In this document: in pieces, positions 14,821 to 25,919 of the stretch | Layout: each line of letters starts with the position of its first letter | Numbering within the stretch: position 1 is the stretch's first letter | Assembly: GCA_021828475.1 (NCBI GenBank) | Contig: JAJZIY010000006.1 | Span: 50,549-114,548, forward strand | DNA from: Actinomycetes bacterium | GTDB lineage: Bacteria; Actinomycetota; Acidimicrobiia; Acidimicrobiales; Palsa-688 | DNA length: 64,000 nucleotides | Direction: 5' to 3' | Made by a program: the position numbers and the translations under genes | The notes under the pieces: model-generated | The model's database searches: none | The model's input: only the letters and a program-made list of their open reading frames with translations | What the model was told of the DNA's origin: nothing

Positions 14821-15018
14821 CTACTGCCCGCCCTTTTGCACGTAGGACTTGACGAACTCCTCCGCGTTGTCCTCCAGGACCTCGTCGATCTCGTCCAGCA
14901 GGTCGTCGAGCTCCGCCTTCAGCTCCTCTCCCCGCTTGGAACCAGCCGGTACCTCTTCGACCTGTTCCGGCTCCGAGCGCGAGGGCGCCTGCTTCTTGAT
15001 CTGCTCTCTCTCAGCCAC
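14821..15018 (-). CDS. pup: Prokaryotic ubiquitin-like protein Pup
   Basis: Pup is the intrinsically disordered 65-residue modifier attached to proteins destined for the proteasome. The helical Mpa-binding region ([33 protein letters not shown]) and the C-terminal GGQ are intact. Ending in Gln, it must be deamidated to Glu by Dop before ligation. GTG start with AGGAGGG at about 8 nt. It begins only 14 nt after dop, so dop and pup are co-transcribed. Confidence 0.98.
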
Positions 15019-15032
15019 TTACCCGTCCCTCC

Positions 15033-16526
15033 TCAAGAGCCCAGCATCTCCAGCAGCTGCGCCGGAGTCGAACACCTTGCCAACAACTCATCGACATGTG
15101 CCGCCGTGCCTCTGAGCGGCTCCATCATCGGGACCCTGCGCAGAGGGTCGCCACCCAGGTCGAACACCAGCGAGTCCCAGTTGGCGGCGGCAATGGCCTG
15201 GGGCCAGCGCTGCAGGCAGCGCCCACGGAAGTAAGCCCGGGTGGTGGTGGGCGGCTCCGTCACAGCCCGTTGGACCTCCTCGTCGGAGAGCAGCCGCTCC
15301 ATACCCGCCCTGGTGTACAGCGATCTCTCCGGCCGGACATCGTGGTACTGCAAATCCATGGCGAACAACCTAGGGTCCCGCCAGCCTAGGCCATGGCGCT
15401 CGCGGTAGCCGGTCACCATGCGGTGCTTGGCCACCCAGTCCAGCTTCGTCGCCATGCTCGCCGGGTCGGACTCCAGACCGGAGAGCACCTCCTCCCAGCA
15501 CCGCAGCACGTCGCGACCCACCTCGTCGCCTCCGACCGGGCCGAGGCCGATGTCGTCGGCGTACTTGGTGGCCAGCTCCAAGTGCTCCCACTGGACCGCC
15601 AGCGCCGTCATCTGGCGCCCGTCGGCCATGGCCAGCGGCCGGCGCAGGCTCAGGTCGTAGGAGACCTGCCGCATCGCCGCCACCGGGTGCGCCAGGCTGT
15701 AGTCCCGCCCGTGGACCGCGAACCAGTCGTCCTCGATCATGGCCAGCACCAGGGCGGTCGTGCCCACCTTGAGGAAGTTGGCGGTCTCCGAGAGGTTGGC
15801 GTCACCAAGGATGACGTGCAGGCGCCGGTACTTCTGGGCGTCGCAGTGCGGCTCGTCCCTGGTGTTGACGATGGGGCGCTTGAGGGTCGTCTCCAGCCCC
15901 ACCTCCTCCTCGAAGAAATCGGCACGCTGCGTGAGCTGGAACTCCACGCCCTCGGCGCCCGCTGCCTCGGCGCCGACCTTGCCGGCACCGGTGTAGATCT
16001 GGCGGGTGACGAAGTGCGGAATGGCATGCTGCACCACCCGGCTGAAGGGAACGGCCCGGTCCATCAGGTAGTTCTCGTGCGCCCCGTAGGAGTTGCCCTT
16101 GCCGTCGGAGTTGTTCTTGTAGACGCTTATCTGCTGGCCGGGGCCGAGAAGGCGGGCAGCCGCCTCGACCGAGCGGGCCAGTACCGCCTCGCCCGCCTTG
16201 TCGTAGAGGACCGCTTCACGGGCGTTCGAGCATTCCGGGCCCGAGTACTCGGGGTGTGCGTGGTCGACGTAGTAGCGGGCGCCGTTGGTGAGCACGGCGT
16301 TGACCAGATGGGTCTCGATCTCCGGGGCCATCTGCACCTCGCGCACGAAGCCACGGGCGTCGCGCGCCGGCGACTCGTCCTGGAAGTCCCACTCGATACG
16401 CCGGGCCAGGGAGGCGACGTAGGCGTTTATCAGCGCCGACGAGGCTGCGATGGGATTGGGCTCCCCGCCTCCGCGCACGATGATCCCGTACTCGGTCTCC
16501 ATGCCCAGAACCTTCGCTATGGCCAC
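15033..16526 (-). CDS. dop: Pup deamidase/depupylase Dop
   Basis: Dop converts the C-terminal Gln of Pup to Glu and removes Pup from substrates. The 497-residue protein has the N-terminal GMETEYGIIVRG, a catalytic Asp in YYVDHAHPEYSG (Asp88 here) and the ATP-site loop YKNNSDGKGNSYGAHENY. A Dop-loop-like insertion before that Asp (residues 40-75) distinguishes it from PafA. GTG at 16526 lies 6 nt after a TAACGT -10 box, suggesting leaderless transcription. Confidence 0.97.
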   Translation of the reverse strand: MAIAKVLGMETEYGIIVRGGGEPNPIAASSALINAYVASLARRIEWDFQDESPARDARGFVREVQMAPEIETHLVNAVLTNGARYYVDHAHPEYSGPECSNAREAVLYDKAGEAVLARSVEAAARLLGPGQQISVYKNNSDGKGNSYGAHENYLMDRAVPFSRVVQHAIPHFVTRQIYTGAGKVGAEAAGAEGVEFQLTQRADFFEEEVGLETTLKRPIVNTRDEPHCDAQKYRRLHVILGDANLSETANFLKVGTTALVLAMIEDDWFAVHGRDYSLAHPVAAMRQVSYDLSLRRPLAMADGRQMTALAVQWEHLELATKYADDIGLGPVGGDEVGRDVLRCWEEVLSGLESDPASMATKLDWVAKHRMVTGYRERHGLGWRDPRLFAMDLQYHDVRPERSLYTRAGMERLLSDEEVQRAVTEPPTTTRAYFRGRCLQRWPQAIAAANWDSLVFDLGGDPLRRVPMMEPLRGTAAHVDELLARCSTPAQLLEMLGS

Positions 16527-16532
16527 GGGCCG

Positions 16533-16538
16533 ACGTTA
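16533..16538 (-). promoter_or_regulatory. Candidate leaderless -10 box for dop-pup
   Basis: On the minus strand TAACGT is followed by CGGCCC and then the GTG of dop. This spacing fits a leaderless transcript that starts at the GTG. The -35 region is not recognisable. Confidence 0.45.
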
Positions 16539-16762
16539 CCCTGCCTACCATGTCTAGGCGGCGGTACCAGCAGACCGGGCCCCCCGGGCACCTGCCCGAG
16601 GCCGCAGCTACCCTTCGCCCGCCTGCGACCCGGACCGCTTCACCCGGGTGCTCCACGCGGTCCCGAGCCGCTGCTGACGTACGTGCTGCGGCCCGCACGT
16701 GGCGGTGCACAGGCGCACCCGGGGCACGCGTGCGCCGGCGTGCCCCGGGATGCTGAGCGAGC

Positions 16763-18535
16763 TCAGAGGTACTGGCCCGTGGCGACACGCTCGATCGAGC
16801 GGCCTCCCTTGGTCTGGTCGCCCTGCGATGTGATCGTCCGGATGTACACGATGCGCTCGCCCTTCTTGCCCGAGATCTTCGCCCAGTCGTCCGGGTTGGT
16901 CGTGTTCGGGAGATCCTCGTGCTCCTTGTACTCCTGCTTGATCGAGTCCAGCAGGTCCTGAGTCCTGATCCCCTTGCCGTCGCCGGCTATCTGCCGCTTG
17001 ATCGAGAGCTTCTTTGCCCGCCGGACGATGTTCTCGATCATGGCACCGGAGGCGAAGTCCTTGTAGTACATCGTCTCCTTGTCGCCGTTCTGGTAGGTCA
17101 CCTCCAGGAACTGGTTGGCCTCGTCGTCGCGGTACATCTCCTCGACCGTGCGCTCGATCATCAGGCGGACCGCCTTGTCCCTGTCGCCCCCGCCGAGGGC
17201 CCGCACCTCGTCCTCGTCGAGAGGCAGGTCCGCAGTCAGGTAGCGCGAGAAGATCTGCGCCGCCGACGTCTCGTCAGGGCGCTCGATCTTGATCTTCACG
17301 TCCAGGCGGCCGGGGCGCAGGATGGCGGGGTCGATCAGGTCCTCGCGGTTCGAGGCGCCGATGACGATGACGTTCTTCAGGGCCTCGACACCGTCTATCT
17401 CGGCCAGCAACTGCGGGACGATCGTCGACTCGACGTCCGAGGAGATGCCGCTGCCGCGGGTCCGGAACAGCGAGTCCATCTCGTCGAAGAAGACTATGAC
17501 GGGCACCCCCTCCTCGCTCTTCTCACGCGCCCGCTGGAACACGAGGCGGATCTGGCGCTCGGTCTCGCCCACGTACTTGTTGAGCAGCTCGGGGCCTTTG
17601 ATGTTGAGGAAGTAGCTGCGCCCCGCCCCCTCGCCCGTGGCCGCCACCTTCTTGGCCAGGGAGTTGGCCACCGCTTTGGCGATCAGGGTCTTCCCGCATC
17701 CCGGCGGGCCGTAGAGGAGGATGCCCTTGGGGGCGGGCAGGCGGTGGTCCAGGAACAGCTCCCGGTAGAGGAAGGGCAGCTCGACGGCGTCGGTGATCTG
17801 CTCGATCTGGGAGTCCAGGCCGCCGACGTCATCGTAGGAGATGTCCGGCACCTCCTCCAGGACCAGGTCCTCCACCTCGGGGCGCGGCAGCTTCTCGAGC
17901 AGGAGGCCGGACCGGGCGTCCATCAGCAGCGAGTCGCCGGAGCGCAGCTTCTCGCCGAGCAGGCTGTCCGCCAGCTCCACCACCCGCTCCTCGTCGGCCC
18001 GCGCCACCACGATCGCGCGGTGCTGGTCCTCCAGCAGCTCCTTCATCGTCACGACCTCACCCGAAAGGTCGCTGCCCCGGGCCAGGACGACGTTGAGGGA
18101 CTCGTTGAGCACGACCTCCTGGCCGCGGTGCAGCTCGGAGGACTCGAGGGCCGGGTGAAGCGAGACGCGCATCTTGCGGCCGCCGGAGAAGACGTCGGCC
18201 GTCCCGTCGTCGTTCAGGGCCAGGAACGTGCCGTAAGCCGACGGCGGCTGGGTGAGCTTGTCGACCTCCTCTCGCAGCGAGGCGATGTGCTCGCGCGCCT
18301 CGCGCAGGGTGTAGGTGAGCCGCTCGTTCTGCGACAGGGCCTGCTGGAGCTGGCCCTTGGTCTCGAGGAGGCGCTCCTCCAGGGTGCGCACCCGCTTGGG
18401 GGCGTCCGCCAGCCGTCGGCGCAGGACGGCCACCTCCTCCTCGAGTGCCGCCACCTGTTCCTCGAGCGAGCTGGTCTGGGCCCGCAGGTCCGCCATCTCC
18501 CGGTCGCGGGCCTGGCCCTGGTTGTTGTCGGGCAT
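16763..18535 (-). CDS. mpa: Proteasome-associated ATPase Mpa/ARC
   Basis: Mpa is the hexameric AAA ATPase that binds Pup, unfolds the substrate and feeds it to the 20S core. The 590-residue protein has an N-terminal coiled coil (about residues 12-85), OB-domain region, Walker A GPPGCGKT, Walker [11 protein letters not shown] and arginine-finger region RPGRLDVKI. It ends in QYL, the proteasome-docking tail. Start: ATG at 18535, preceded by AAGGAGGTGG, rather than the longer track ORF. It faces the ferredoxin gene across a divergent promoter region. Confidence 0.97.
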
Positions 18536-18624
18536 GCGGGACCACCTCCTTTGACTTGGCCGTCCTGGACGCCGCCAGTTCGACCGGGGCCGAGGTCCGG
18601 CCTTTGGCGCGACCATACTGCCGT

Positions 18625-18634
18625 TGTCGCGACA
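18625..18634. promoter_or_regulatory. Palindrome TGTCGCGACA upstream of mpa
   Basis: This is a perfect 10-bp palindrome 90 bp upstream of the mpa ATG, in the mpa/ferredoxin divergent region. It shares the TGTC/GACA ends with the longer palindrome 33 bp further on, so it may be a second site for the same regulator. Short palindromes occur by chance, so support is weak. Confidence 0.3.
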
Positions 18635-18666
18635 GCTGGCGTACGGGCGCGGCGTGCCTGGCCAGC

Positions 18667-18681
18667 AGTGTCATTGACACT
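18667..18681. promoter_or_regulatory. 15-bp perfect palindrome, candidate operator
   Basis: AGTGTCA-T-TGACACT is a perfect 7-1-7 palindrome. It covers the -35 hexamer TTGACA of the ferredoxin promoter, a place where a bound repressor would block RNA polymerase. The regulator is unknown. Confidence 0.5.
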
Positions 18682-21861: not shown

Positions 21862-23052
21862 TCAGCCGTTGACGCAGGCCTCGGTGCTCACCGCGTGCTG
21901 GTGCGGCGAGGCCAGCAGGGGCACCAGCTCGCTGGTGCTGAGCGCGTAGGCCGTCGTGGCCCGGTCAGGTGCGATGGCGAAGGCGATGCCCACGACATCG
22001 CCGTGACGGTCGACCAGCGGGGCCCCGGAATCGCCATAGGTGAGCCGCGCTGCCAGCACGAACACGTCACGGGTGGTCGTCCTGGTCGCGTACAGGTCCT
22101 CGCCGCGCGCCGTGACCTCGTCGGCGATCGCCGCCGGCTGCACCGCCAGCGGGTCCTGGCCGTTGGGATGGCCCAGTACGACCCCGGTCTGGCCGGCGCG
22201 CCCGGTAGCCAGCGGTAGTGCCGGTTCGCCCAGACCGGGTACCGACAGCAGGGCGAGGTCGACGTTGGGGTTGTAGAGCACCACGGAGGCGGGCTTGGGC
22301 AGCATGCTGCCCGGGAGCAGGACCTGGGTCGAGCCCGCCGGCTCTCCGGCCACGACGTGGGCGTTGGTGACCACGAGGTCCGGGGCCACAGTGAAACCGC
22401 TGCCTTCCTGCAGCCGCCCGCAGGCTTGGCCCTCCACCTTCACGGTCGATCCCTCGGCCCGGCTGAGTGCGGCACCGGCCAGGGGGCTGTGCAGCGGTGG
22501 CGCCCCGGTGTCCTGGCTGGGGCCGAAGGAGGTGAACACCTGAGGGAAGCCGTCCTGGCCCACCAGGCGCCTCAGTGCCTGCAGGGTGTTCGGCGGGTTG
22601 ATCCCGGCCGAGGCCGTTGCCTGGCTTACCCAGCGGGCGATCACCGAGCCGGTGGTCAGCTGCGACAGCGTGCCCGGCACGGCGGCCAGGGACGGTGCCA
22701 GCAGCCAGACGGCCGCCAGGACGCCGATGACGCCCAGCGCCGAGCCGACGGCCCTGTCGGCGGTGCGCACCCCCCCGAAGGGCAGCACCGAGTGCAGCCG
22801 CGCCCCGACCATGAGGCCGACGGCCTGGCCCAGGAAGGCACCCGCCAGCAGGACCACTATCGCCAGGGCGATGCGAGGCACCGAGCCCGACAGGTGCACG
22901 AGCTTGACGACGTCAGGCAGGAAGCGGACCGCGACGTAGAGCCCGGCTCCCAGCCCGAGCCAGGAGAACACCCGCGCCAGAAAGCCCATGCGCCAGCCGC
23001 CCAGGGCCGCGAGCCCGGCGGCAACAAGGATCCCTATGTCGAAGGCGTTCAC
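21862..23052 (-). CDS. marP: Membrane serine protease MarP-like (CvpA domain plus trypsin-like protease)
   Basis: MarP is a periplasmic protease needed for acid and oxidative stress resistance in mycobacteria. The 396-residue protein has four N-terminal membrane helices (about residues 5-120, CvpA-like) and a chymotrypsin-fold domain with His232 (TNAHVV), Asp265 (NVDLALL) and Ser342 (GDSGAP). Cys211 and Cys393 could form the disulfide known in mycobacterial MarP. The GTG at 23052 overlaps the trmI stop as GTGA, so the long track start is not used. Confidence 0.92.
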   Translation of the reverse strand: MNAFDIGILVAAGLAALGGWRMGFLARVFSWLGLGAGLYVAVRFLPDVVKLVHLSGSVPRIALAIVVLLAGAFLGQAVGLMVGARLHSVLPFGGVRTADRAVGSALGVIGVLAAVWLLAPSLAAVPGTLSQLTTGSVIARWVSQATASAGINPPNTLQALRRLVGQDGFPQVFTSFGPSQDTGAPPLHSPLAGAALSRAEGSTVKVEGQACGRLQEGSGFTVAPDLVVTNAHVVAGEPAGSTQVLLPGSMLPKPASVVLYNPNVDLALLSVPGLGEPALPLATGRAGQTGVVLGHPNGQDPLAVQPAAIADEVTARGEDLYATRTTTRDVFVLAARLTYGDSGAPLVDRHGDVVGIAFAIAPDRATTAYALSTSELVPLLASPHQHAVSTEACVNG

Positions 23053-23849
23053 GAGCCGACCGAGAGCAGCCTCGCAGAGGTGAGGAAGCCCGTGTGACCC
23101 ACCATCCTGTGGTCCGGACGCACCGACTGGCCGTCGATGTGCCATCCCCGCTGCATGACCTCGATCGTCTCCGCAAGGGCGAACCCGGCCCCGTTGAGCG
23201 CCTCCCGCAGCGCCGTCACCTGGGGAACCGTCGGCAGGTAGGAGACGAGTATGCCCCCAGGCCTCAGCGCGGTTGCGGCGTGGCCGACCACCCGCCACGG
23301 CTCGGGCAGGTCGAGGACCACCCGGTCCAGGCCCTCCGGCCCGATGCCCTCGTACACGTCGCGTACCTCGACGTGGTAGCGCTCCATCACGGCCGCGCCG
23401 AGGAAGCCGGTGACGTTCGCGGCGGCCCGGTCGGCGAAGTCCTGGCGCAACTCGTAGCCGGTCACGTCGGCGCCAGCCCTCAGCAGGGCCATGGACAGCG
23501 CCCCGGAGCCGAGCCCGGACTCGAGCACCCGGGCACCGGGGAAGATGTCCGCCAGCATCAGTATCGGGCCGAGGTCCTTCGGGTAGATGACCTGGGCGCC
23601 GCGTGGCATCTTGAGCACGACCTCGGCCAGTGTCGGGCGAACGGCGATGTAACGCGAGCCGCGGTTCGAGTGCACGGTGAGGCCCTCGTCGCGCCCTATC
23701 AGGTCGTCGTGCGCCACGAAGCCGGCGTGAGTGTGGAACTCGGCTCCCGCCGCGAGCGACACCAGATAGCGGCGTCCCTTGGAGTCGAAGAGCAGCACCC
23801 GCTCCCCCACCTCGAAGGGGCGCCTCGGAGCCATCTCCCCGGCGCTCAC
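23049..23849 (-). CDS. trmI: tRNA (adenine-58-N1)-methyltransferase TrmI
   Basis: TrmI makes m1A58 in the T-loop of tRNAs. The 266-residue protein has an N-terminal beta domain (FEVGERVLLFDSKGRRYLV) and an SAM-binding Rossmann domain with the loop VLESGLGSGALSMALLRAG and the catalytic-site motif LDLPEPW. GTG at 23849 overlaps the ttuA stop as GTGA; the longer track ORF would lie inside ttuA. In mycobacteria trmI is also close to mpa. Confidence 0.94.
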   Translation of the reverse strand: MSAGEMAPRRPFEVGERVLLFDSKGRRYLVSLAAGAEFHTHAGFVAHDDLIGRDEGLTVHSNRGSRYIAVRPTLAEVVLKMPRGAQVIYPKDLGPILMLADIFPGARVLESGLGSGALSMALLRAGADVTGYELRQDFADRAAANVTGFLGAAVMERYHVEVRDVYEGIGPEGLDRVVLDLPEPWRVVGHAATALRPGGILVSYLPTVPQVTALREALNGAGFALAETIEVMQRGWHIDGQSVRPDHRMVGHTGFLTSARLLSVGS

Positions 23850-24781
23850 AGCGCCGTTACCGGGATCCGCCGCCGCGGGTCGCCGCCGGCCCGCTCGACC
23901 AGTTTGCAGAACGCGCACACGGCTGCCGTCGTCGGCGCCGCGCAGCTCGGGCAGGGGTGCAGGCCCTCCCGCTCGTCCTGACAGAGCTCGGCGCCGAGCG
24001 CCGACCCGCGGTCGAGGAAGCCGTTGTAGAACGCGGCCTTGGTCCCGGGCGAGCGCTCCTCGATGGCGTTCAGGGCCTCCTTGTAGCCGAGATGGCGGTT
24101 GCCCGCCGACATCGGGCATTCCTCGACCTGGTAGTCGAGCCCTTTCAGCACGCAGTAGGCGGCCGTCTCCCTCTCACCCAACTTCACCAGCGGCTTGACC
24201 TTGCGGGGGAAACCCTCGCCTCCGGGGAGCACGGGCCTCTGGCGGGCCAGGTAGGCGACATCCCAGCGCAGGACGTTGCCGAGAAGGACGGCAGCCTCGT
24301 CGTCAAGGTTGTGCCCCGTCGCCACCACGTCGTAGCCGCCGTCCAGAGCGGCGCGGTCGAAGACGTGGCGTTTGGACAGGCCACAGGCCGAGCACGGTAC
24401 CCGCCGGTCGGCTGCCGCCCCGGTCTTCACGTCGTAACCGAAGTCCGAGGGGAGGTCGACCTCGACCAGGTGCGCCTGACGGGCCGCTGCGAACGCCCTC
24501 GCGTGCTCGCCCGAGGGCTGGCTGTAACCGGCGATCCCGAGCCCTATGTAGAGGCCGTCGGCCTGGTACCCGATGTCGAGCAGGATGTCCCAGAGCGCCA
24601 GCGAGTCCTTGCCGCCCGAGACCGCGACCAGCACACGCTCGTCCGGGCCCATCATGCGGTGCTCCTTGACCGCCCGTTCGACCTGTGCGCGGCAGTGCCC
24701 GAGGAAGCAGTCGGAGCAGAAGGCGGCGTTGTGCCTGCGGACGTCCACGACGGCGGGCCGGCGGCAGACCTTGCACTTCAC
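23846..24781 (-). CDS. ttuA: TtuA-family tRNA 2-thiolation enzyme (iron-sulfur, PP-loop)
   Basis: TtuA adenylates m5U54 of tRNA and inserts sulfur donated by the ubiquitin-like carrier TtuB. In this 311-residue protein the N-terminal zinc finger is C3xxC6...C22xxC25, the PP-loop is SGGKDS (residues 55-60), and Cys130, Cys133 and Cys222 sit exactly where the [4Fe-4S] ligands of Thermus TtuA are numbered. A C-terminal zinc finger uses Cys277, 280, 289 and 292. GTG start in a GTGA overlap with the carrier gene. Related Ncs6 enzymes act at U34, so target position is inferred. Confidence 0.88.
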   Translation of the reverse strand: MKCKVCRRPAVVDVRRHNAAFCSDCFLGHCRAQVERAVKEHRMMGPDERVLVAVSGGKDSLALWDILLDIGYQADGLYIGLGIAGYSQPSGEHARAFAAARQAHLVEVDLPSDFGYDVKTGAAADRRVPCSACGLSKRHVFDRAALDGGYDVVATGHNLDDEAAVLLGNVLRWDVAYLARQRPVLPGGEGFPRKVKPLVKLGERETAAYCVLKGLDYQVEECPMSAGNRHLGYKEALNAIEERSPGTKAAFYNGFLDRGSALGAELCQDEREGLHPCPSCAAPTTAAVCAFCKLVERAGGDPRRRIPVTAL

Positions 24782-25014
24782 CTGGGGCTCCCCGTCGGCG
24801 CCGGCCCGGTCGCCCCGCCCGACACGACCGGGCGGATTTCGACACCCGAACCGTCGGCGATGGTGGCGTCACCTGTCACCAGGGTGCCGTCCACGATGAC
24901 GAGGACCGCCTCCCTTATGTAACCGAGCTGTTCGAGCAGCGCCAGGACGCCGAGCGGTCCCGGCACCTCCAGCTCACGCTTCGGGTTCCGCAGCAGGACT
25001 TTCACGCCGCCCAT
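24778..25014 (-). CDS. TtuB/MoaD/ThiS-like sulfur carrier with C-terminal extension
   Basis: This is a 78-residue beta-grasp-like protein (KVLLRNPKRELEVPG, LLEQLGY, AVLVIVDGTLV, GSGVEIRPVVSGG). Carriers of this family end in Gly-Gly, where the thiocarboxylate forms. Here GG (66-67) is followed by an 11-residue tail, ATGPAPTGSPR, so it would need trimming before activation. Overlap of its stop with the ttuA start strongly supports a partner role. No strong Shine-Dalgarno sequence precedes ATG 25014; a GTG three codons in is possible. No E1-like activator or JAMM protease is in the window. Confidence 0.8.
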   Translation of the reverse strand: MGGVKVLLRNPKRELEVPGPLGVLALLEQLGYIREAVLVIVDGTLVTGDATIADGSGVEIRPVVSGGATGPAPTGSPR

Positions 25015-25228
25015 TGTTGCCGCTGCGGGACCGGTGCGTGATGACGAGCCGCCGCCCGGGCTCCAGCTTCTCGGTGAAGACGACTTCCGGACGGCGCCTG
25101 AGCACCCTCAGCGCCAACCGCCCGGCGAGCGCCAGGGCGCCAAGCACGAGCCAGGTCTGCTCACCCCCGAGCAGGCCCCGGCGCAGGCCGCGCCGGACCA
25201 ACAGGTCAGAGAGCCTCTTCAGCACCAC
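24974..25228 (-). CDS. Small membrane-anchored basic protein, unknown function
   Basis: The 84-residue product has a basic N-terminus, one membrane helix (about residues 25-42, WLVLGALALAGRLALRVL) and a basic C-terminal tail. GTG at 25228 has a strong GGAGG 5 nt upstream. Its last 41 nt overlap the start of the sulfur carrier gene, in another frame. No family is recognised. The RBS and tight packing in the operon are the evidence that it is real. Confidence 0.7.
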   Translation of the reverse strand: MVLKRLSDLLVRRGLRRGLLGGEQTWLVLGALALAGRLALRVLRRRPEVVFTEKLEPGRRLVITHRSRSGNNGRRESPAAEPEA

Positions 25229-25242
25229 GTCACCTCCGGGGG

Positions 25243-25485
25243 CTAGCCCCGACGGATCTCCACGATCGTCGAGCGCCGCCTGCCACTACGCCTACCCAGA
25301 AAAAAGGCGGCCACCAACACCAGTGCCCCGCCGGCGATGGCGACGTAGTTGAGGACCGGGCGCGCCGCGTCGACCTGCTGCTGCACTCCCCCGGCGAGCT
25401 CGTCGGCCTTGCGCCGGACGTCCTCGGGCGTGATGCGCCCGCCGGGGCCGGTGCCCGTGACCTTGGCCTCCGTCCGCGGGCTCAC
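25243..25485 (-). CDS. Small membrane protein with a lipoyl-E3-binding-like motif
   Basis: The 80-residue product opens with TGTGPGGRITPEDVRRKADEL, close to the core of the peripheral subunit-binding domain of 2-oxoacid dehydrogenase E2 proteins. A short helix, a membrane segment (about residues 46-62, YVAIAGGALVLVAAFFLG) and a basic tail follow. GTG at 25485 overlaps the previous stop as GTGA, which rejects the longer track start. Function is unknown; the motif similarity may be convergence. Confidence 0.65.
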   Translation of the reverse strand: MSPRTEAKVTGTGPGGRITPEDVRRKADELAGGVQQQVDAARPVLNYVAIAGGALVLVAAFFLGRRSGRRRSTIVEIRRG

Positions 25486-25919
25486 GGCCGCCTGCCCTTC
25501 AGCGCGCGTGCCAGGCTGAACGCGGCCACGAGGACGCACAGCAGTGCACCGCCCATGTACGGCACCCAGGACCAGCTGCCCGAGAGGTGACCTCCGACCC
25601 CGTACGGAGCGGCCTTGACCAGGACCGTCGGGCCGACCTCCTTGGCCAAGGGCGCATAGGCGGACAAGCCGCTCAGCGGGTGCACCCCCCCGAACTCGCT
25701 CTGCAGCGCCCGCACGAAGCCGACGGCCAGGAGCACGGTGCCCATGGCCATCACCAGGGCGCCGGCAACCCCGACCACCACCAGCTTGAGCTGCGCCAGG
25801 ACCGGGTCGAGGGTCTCCTGCTTGACGTAGGCGAGGACGGTCTGGAAGAAATCCGCCGCTCCCTCCTTGGCGCTCGCCCGCTGCCGCCCAGATCTCTCAG
25901 TCCCACTGCTACCAGGCAT
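25482..25919 (-). CDS. Holin-X-like / actinobacterial integral membrane protein
   Basis: This is a 145-residue protein with a charged N-terminal 35 residues and then membrane segments at about 45-70 (LKLVVVGVAGALVMAMGTVLLAVGFV) and 118-140. The layout resembles the putative actinobacterial holin-X / phage holin superfamily, though a lytic role is unlikely in this chromosomal setting. It is the first gene of the seven-gene unit ending in marP. Its function is not known. Confidence 0.7.
   Translation of the reverse strand: MPGSSGTERSGRQRASAKEGAADFFQTVLAYVKQETLDPVLAQLKLVVVGVAGALVMAMGTVLLAVGFVRALQSEFGGVHPLSGLSAYAPLAKEVGPTVLVKAAPYGVGGHLSGSWSWVPYMGGALLCVLVAAFSLARALKGRRP

What the first reader, a model, noticed from the sequence alone, without database searches (positions are those of the whole stretch)
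24778..25014. Ubiquitin-like sulfur carrier whose Gly-Gly is followed by an 11-residue tail
The protein coupled to ttuA is 78 residues, shows the TtuB/MoaD/ThiS pattern and has Gly-Gly at 66-67, but ends ATGPAPTGSPR. Known carriers must end in Gly-Gly to form a thiocarboxylate. This one would need a protease step, like eukaryotic ubiquitin precursors or JAMM-processed carriers. It lies in the same neighbourhood as Pup, so the window encodes two different ubiquitin-like modifiers.
Basis: partly seen in the sequence, partly recalled or inferred. Interest (0 to 1): 0.75.

Follow-up and report, generated by a model that had tools for sequence, protein, structure and literature searches.

The report
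Tail-capped tRNA sulfur carrier precursor
A small ubiquitin-like protein that probably carries sulfur to tRNA is encoded with extra residues after its working Gly-Gly end; relatives carry anything from none to 55 extra residues, or the whole partner enzyme TtuA fused on, so the real end is most likely made by a protease cut.

Summary
The minus-strand gene at 24778-25014 encodes a 78-residue TtuB-type beta-grasp sulfur carrier with Gly-Gly at 66-67 and an 11-residue tail, and it overlaps ttuA by four bases (GTGA). It is not a sequencing error: a same-genus genome also has an 11-residue tail. The tail itself is not conserved: 0 synonymous and 6 non-synonymous codon changes between the two, against 12 and 5 in the body. 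SGG is invariant in relatives, but what follows varies from nothing to 55 residues (most often two). In 24 genomes of seven families elsewhere in the phylum, SGG is followed in frame by TtuA itself, with a 4-11-residue linker. The best reading is a precursor cut after Gly67, then thiocarboxylated by the genome's single MoeB/MoeZ-like E1 and used by TtuA. The likely protease is the genome's only JAMM peptidase, encoded beside a second capped carrier (CysO, ending GGAD); JAMM co-occurrence does not prove this. Capped carriers and JAMM-cut carrier fusions are known (QbsE, PtmS2, MoaD-MoaE), so this is a new variant of a known kind. I found no description of TtuB-TtuA fusions in the held papers. 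The common two-residue stub is explained by the Gly-Gly codons doubling as ttuA's ribosome-binding site.

The parts
24778..25014 (-). TtuB-type sulfur carrier precursor gene, 78 codons plus TGA
   Evidence: ThiS Pfam match residues 12-67; AlphaFold2 model closest to Thermus TtuB 5gha, rmsd 1.5 A
24814..24819 (-). codons for Gly66-Gly67, the predicted mature C-terminus (cut after Gly67)
   Evidence: S65, G66, G67 invariant in 25 aligned relatives; SGG invariant in 23 TtuB-TtuA fusions
24781..24813 (-). 11-codon C-terminal tail ATGPAPTGSPR, predicted to be removed
   Evidence: not conserved: 0 synonymous / 6 non-synonymous codon changes against the same-genus relative, body 12 / 5; low model confidence
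24788..24793 (-). GGGGAG, candidate Shine-Dalgarno of ttuA lying inside the tail, 6 nt before the GTG start
   Evidence: sequence; in short-tail relatives this role falls to the Gly-Gly codons
24778..24781 (-). GTGA overlap of carrier stop and ttuA start
23846..24781 (-). ttuA, tRNA U54 2-sulfurtransferase, 311 aa
   Evidence: TtuA_LIM_N above cut-off; Thermus TtuA 5gha_A E = 2.7e-84
23049..23834 (-). trmI, tRNA m1A58 methyltransferase, next gene of the unit
   Evidence: GCD14 and TrmI-like_N Pfam; found in 125 of 130 related loci

Best explanation
The gene encodes an inactive precursor of a TtuB-type sulfur carrier. A peptidase cuts after Gly67 and removes the non-conserved 11-residue tail. 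The genome's only JAMM metallopeptidase, encoded in a mec-cysO-cysM operon on another contig, is the likely enzyme. The freed glycine is adenylated and thiocarboxylated by the single MoeB/MoeZ-like E1, and TtuA transfers the sulfur to U54 of tRNA. The tail is not a functional element. Its existence reflects how tightly the carrier and ttuA genes are coupled: in most relatives the Gly-Gly codons act as ttuA's ribosome-binding site, which forces about two extra codons before the overlapping start. With a peptidase on hand the stop can drift further, giving long tails or full fusion to TtuA. Shown here: sequence, fold, SGG invariance, tail variability, fusions, codon bias, and presence of one JAMM and one E1. 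Inferred: the cut, the identity of the protease, and the tRNA target.
For: SGG is invariant while what follows is free. 24 genomes in 7 families encode SGG plus a 4-11-residue linker plus TtuA in one frame, without a start codon in the linker in nearly all; SGG is invariant there, and the model is disordered exactly at 62-66. A Gly-Gly buried in a chain cannot form a thiocarboxylate, so its conservation implies cutting. The tail lacks protein-level constraint. Own genome: MoaD and ThiS end at GG, whereas CysO (GGAD), a second CysO-like carrier (GGQ) and this protein are capped; one JAMM with an intact E/HxH/SxxD motif stands beside CysO; one full E1 with a rhodanese domain. Closest solved complexes include SAMP2 with JAMM1 and TtuB with TtuA. 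Precedents: capped carriers (PMC6006322); DR0402 cuts MoaD-MoaE (PMC8832034); loss of the Thermus JAMM gives aberrant TtuB conjugates and about half the thiouridine (PMC3980101). Ribosome-binding-site reading: the ttuA start lies exactly 5 nt after Gly-Gly in 50 loci; the first Gly codon is GGA/GGG in 38 of 59 near-start genes against 7 of 24 fusions (p = 0.007) and 8 of 33 distant starts (p = 0.0004).
Against: No cleavage was observed. JAMM co-occurrence does not discriminate: it is in 67 of 72 genomes of the phylum sample whether or not they have the carrier, including all five phylum-sample genomes whose carrier ends exactly at GG. Some capped or fused genomes show no JAMM even with a sensitive profile: G383 (fused, 98% complete), G120 (only a weak hit), and several Acidimicrobiia MAGs, so assembly gaps or another peptidase must be assumed. 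The codon-bias test does not correct for relatedness of the genes.
Confidence: 0.75

Rival explanations
1. The tail is cut after Gly67, but by a peptidase other than the JAMM (another protease or general C-terminal trimming); the JAMM serves only CysO and deconjugation.
For: Capped or fused carriers occur in genomes with no detectable JAMM, including a 98% complete one; the JAMM is linked to cysO-cysM, not to ttuB.
Against: 22 of 24 fused genomes and 36 of 45 capped Acidimicrobiia genomes have the JAMM; every characterised case named in the papers read uses a JAMM (PMC6006322, PMC8832034).
Confidence: 0.2
2. The tail stays on and the protein is no longer a thiocarboxylate carrier; it is a structural or regulatory partner of TtuA.
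For: The tail varies freely and in some lineages the carrier is covalently fused to TtuA, as a permanent subunit would be.
Against: SGG is invariant everywhere although no structure would need it; genomes with exact SGG ends are interspersed with capped ones on the TtuA tree.
Confidence: 0.05
3. Sequencing or assembly artefact: a frameshift or misread stop creates the tail.
For: The window comes from a draft genome in 147 contigs.
Against: A separate same-genus genome has the same tail length and the same GTGA junction with a diverged sequence; about 90 related loci from many projects also have residues after SGG.
Confidence: 0.01

Closest known systems
TtuB of Thermus thermophilus
   Same: Beta-grasp fold (5gha, rmsd 1.5 A), SGG motif, TtuA partner, E1 in the genome
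   Different: The precursor here has 11 residues after Gly-Gly; the Thermus carrier chains end at Gly-Gly
Capped sulfur carriers PtmS2/PtmS3 (Streptomyces) and QbsE (processed by QbsD)
   Same: Residues after GG that must be removed; a JAMM in the genome, beside one capped carrier
MoaD-MoaE linear fusions (Deinococcus DR2607, mycobacterial MoaX)
   Same: A carrier fused at its Gly-Gly to its partner enzyme, cut by a JAMM; the TtuB-TtuA fusions of relatives are laid out alike
   Different: Molybdopterin rather than tRNA thiolation; the window gene itself is not fused
SAMP2 with JAMM1 (Pyrococcus, 5lda)
   Same: Best sequence-profile match of the carrier family in the PDB; a JAMM that accepts it
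   Different: Archaeal; encoded to end at Gly-Gly

Membership tests
TtuB sulfur carriers | Beta-grasp ThiS/MoaD fold | tested here: met
   Pfam ThiS 32.2 bits; AlphaFold2 pLDDT 80 and Foldseek best hit TtuB 5gha
TtuB sulfur carriers | Conserved Gly-Gly motif | tested here: met
   S65-G66-G67 invariant
TtuB sulfur carriers | Gly-Gly is the C-terminus of the working protein | not testable with these tools
   The encoded protein does not end there; the mature end needs mass spectrometry
TtuB sulfur carriers | Encoded with or acting with TtuA | tested here: met
   GTGA overlap with ttuA; TtuA E = 2.7e-84 to Thermus TtuA
TtuB sulfur carriers | E1-like activating enzyme in the genome | tested here: met
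   One full MoeB-type protein with a rhodanese domain on contig C40
TtuB sulfur carriers | Donates sulfur to tRNA position 54 | not testable with these tools
   Inferred from TtuA and the linked trmI
Capped sulfur-carrier precursors (QbsE/PtmS2 type) | Extra residues after Gly-Gly in the encoded protein | tested here: met
Capped sulfur-carrier precursors (QbsE/PtmS2 type) | JAMM peptidase with intact metal motif in the genome | tested here: met
   PF14464 85.9 bits, contig C128; E, HxH, SxxD residues conserved
Capped sulfur-carrier precursors (QbsE/PtmS2 type) | Peptidase removes the cap | not testable with these tools
   needs an enzyme assay
Carrier-enzyme linear fusions (MoaD-MoaE type) | Carrier and partner in one reading frame | tested here: not met
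   Not met in the window (separate frames, own stop); met in 24 genomes of the same phylum

The most novel reading that the evidence does not exclude
Across Actinomycetota, tRNA thiolation by TtuA depends on proteolytic maturation of its ubiquitin-like donor. TtuB is made as a capped precursor or as a TtuB-TtuA polyprotein that a JAMM-type peptidase cuts at Gly-Gly, as eukaryotic ubiquitin is freed from its fusions; and the Gly-Gly codons double as the ribosome-binding site of ttuA, which created and keeps the cap.
Probability: 0.5. Interest if true: 0.65.

Novelty: new variant of a known kind. Interest (0 to 1): 0.5.

Why it matters
It extends protease-dependent maturation of ubiquitin-like carriers to tRNA thiolation and offers natural TtuB-TtuA fusions in which the cut, its enzyme and its order relative to sulfur loading can be tested directly. 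It also gives a simple reason, gene coupling, why a bacterial ubiquitin-like protein gains a C-terminal cap at all, which bears on how ubiquitin precursors and their proteases arose.

Tried and rejected
1) JAMM presence against cap presence: not informative, because JAMM is near-universal in the sampled genomes (67 of 72). In Acidimicrobiia, 2 of 5 exact-GG genomes against 36 of 45 capped ones pass the cut-off, too few and with MAG gaps; a sensitive profile and Pfam JAB did not change this. 2) Conserved function of the tail: rejected. 3) Sequencing error: rejected. 5) A first regex for the codon test failed and was repeated. 6) A wrong-frame trmI query was repeated with the right protein. 7) Literature: searches for TtuA/TtuB fusion and TtuB/JAMM turned up no description of TtuB-TtuA fusion; the 2006 survey passages read list ThiS-ThiG, MoaD-MoaE and sulfite reductase fusions and predict JAB cutting, without TtuA. 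The library is open-access only, so absence is not proof.

Full report
WHAT IS THERE. The ORF is on the minus strand, 25014 down to 24778, 78 codons, and its TGA overlaps the GTG start of ttuA as GTGA. Pfam ThiS covers residues 12-67 and stops at the Gly-Gly. A profile of the family finds SAMP2 (5lda), PF1061 and TtuB (5ztb, 5gha) in the PDB. The AlphaFold2 model (pLDDT 80) has the beta-grasp order, low confidence after residue 68, and TtuB of Thermus as best structural match, rmsd 1.5 A. TtuA is closest to Thermus TtuA (E = 2.7e-84). The next gene is trmI (tRNA m1A58 methyltransferase), present beside ttuA in 125 of 130 related loci, which fits a T-loop modification unit.

THE TAIL. In 80 Acidimicrobiia loci (organism names) the sequence after the SGG is 2 residues in 46, none in 5, and 1 to 55 in the rest. 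Within the window's genus the tail is 11, 11 or 2 residues. Between the window and its same-genus relative the body has 12 synonymous and 5 non-synonymous changed codons; the tail has 0 and 6. So the tail is real, but nothing conserved is in it.

FUSION IN RELATIVES. A phylum-wide profile search found the carrier in 55 of 297 genomes at least 90% complete. In 24 of 50 loci read, SGG runs on through a 4-11-residue linker into TtuA in one frame. All 24 fused ORFs run to a stop codon, 369 to 415 aa (the start of one, L173, was not placed), and the linkers have no start codon except in L224. They come from seven families, some from single-contig genomes. Pfam places ThiS at 10-65 and the TtuA LIM domain from 70 in L176. 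SGG is invariant in the alignment of 23, and the predicted model is disordered at 62-66. In one genus (g178) one genome is fused and two are split with a three-residue tail. On a TtuA tree the fused state needs at least four changes. Since only a free C-terminal glycine can be thiocarboxylated, keeping SGG inside a chain makes sense only if the chain is cut there.

WHO CUTS. The own genome has one JAMM above the Pfam cut-off, in a mec-cysO-cysM operon, and one full E1, a MoeB-like protein with an N-terminal rhodanese domain. Its five carriers form an internal comparison: MoaD-like and ThiS-like end at GG, CysO ends GGAD, a second CysO-like one ends GGQ, and this one has 11 residues (the MoaD and ThiS names are from sequence and context only). 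Streptomyces platensis has the same pattern, with two capped and two exposed carriers, one JAMM beside a capped one, and the statement that capped carriers need a protease (PMC6006322). JAMM enzymes cut linear MoaD-MoaE and SAMP fusions (PMC8832034), and a 2006 survey predicted this for fused ThiS/MoaD (PMC1779556). However, JAMM is in 67 of 72 genomes tested whether or not they have the carrier, and some capped or fused genomes lack a detectable one, so the assignment is inference.

WHY TWO RESIDUES. In 50 of the 94 split loci with a located ttuA start, the start codon begins exactly 5 nt after the Gly-Gly codons. GGNGGN is a purine-rich ribosome-binding core, and with the GTGA/ATGA overlap this spacing means two extra codons. 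Where the start is 3-8 nt away, the first Gly codon is GGC in only 15 of 59, against 119 of 211 other glycines in the same genes (p = 3e-5), and is GGA/GGG in 38 of 59 against 7 of 24 in fusions and 8 of 33 where the start is further off. These are contingency tests without correction for relatedness. In the window a separate GGGGAG lies in the tail 6 nt before GTG, as expected if the site moved into the tail.

VERDICT. This is a TtuB-type member of the known class of capped carriers, with unusually free cap length and, in relatives, fusion to TtuA that I found described nowhere in the held papers.

Noticed in passing
L031:1936-2262 and L044 (own genome, contigs C128 and C110): Two more capped carriers in the same genome: CysO ending AVAGGAD beside the JAMM, and a second CysO/SAMP1-like protein ending AVAGGQ.
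   Followed up: partly
L169, L171, L173-L176, L181, L183, L185, L216-L222, L224-L226, L228, L229, L232, L233, L235: TtuB-TtuA single-frame fusions in seven families of the phylum.
   Followed up: yes
L110 (after SGG): A 55-residue tail made mostly of a tandem-duplicated 27-28-residue unit that includes the Gly-Gly codons.
   Followed up: no
L224 and L238 (genome G149): One genome holds a carrier fused to TtuA (with an in-frame ATG in the linker) and a second standalone carrier ending SGGSV.
   Followed up: no
window 14821-18670, minus strand: Pup (ending GGQ), a Pup-ligase family protein and a proteasomal ATPase lie about 6-10 kb from the carrier on the same strand.
   Followed up: partly
window 24974-25919, minus strand: Three small ORFs upstream of the carrier, the first overlapping its start; at least two look membrane-bound by eye, and the first has no Pfam match.
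   Followed up: no
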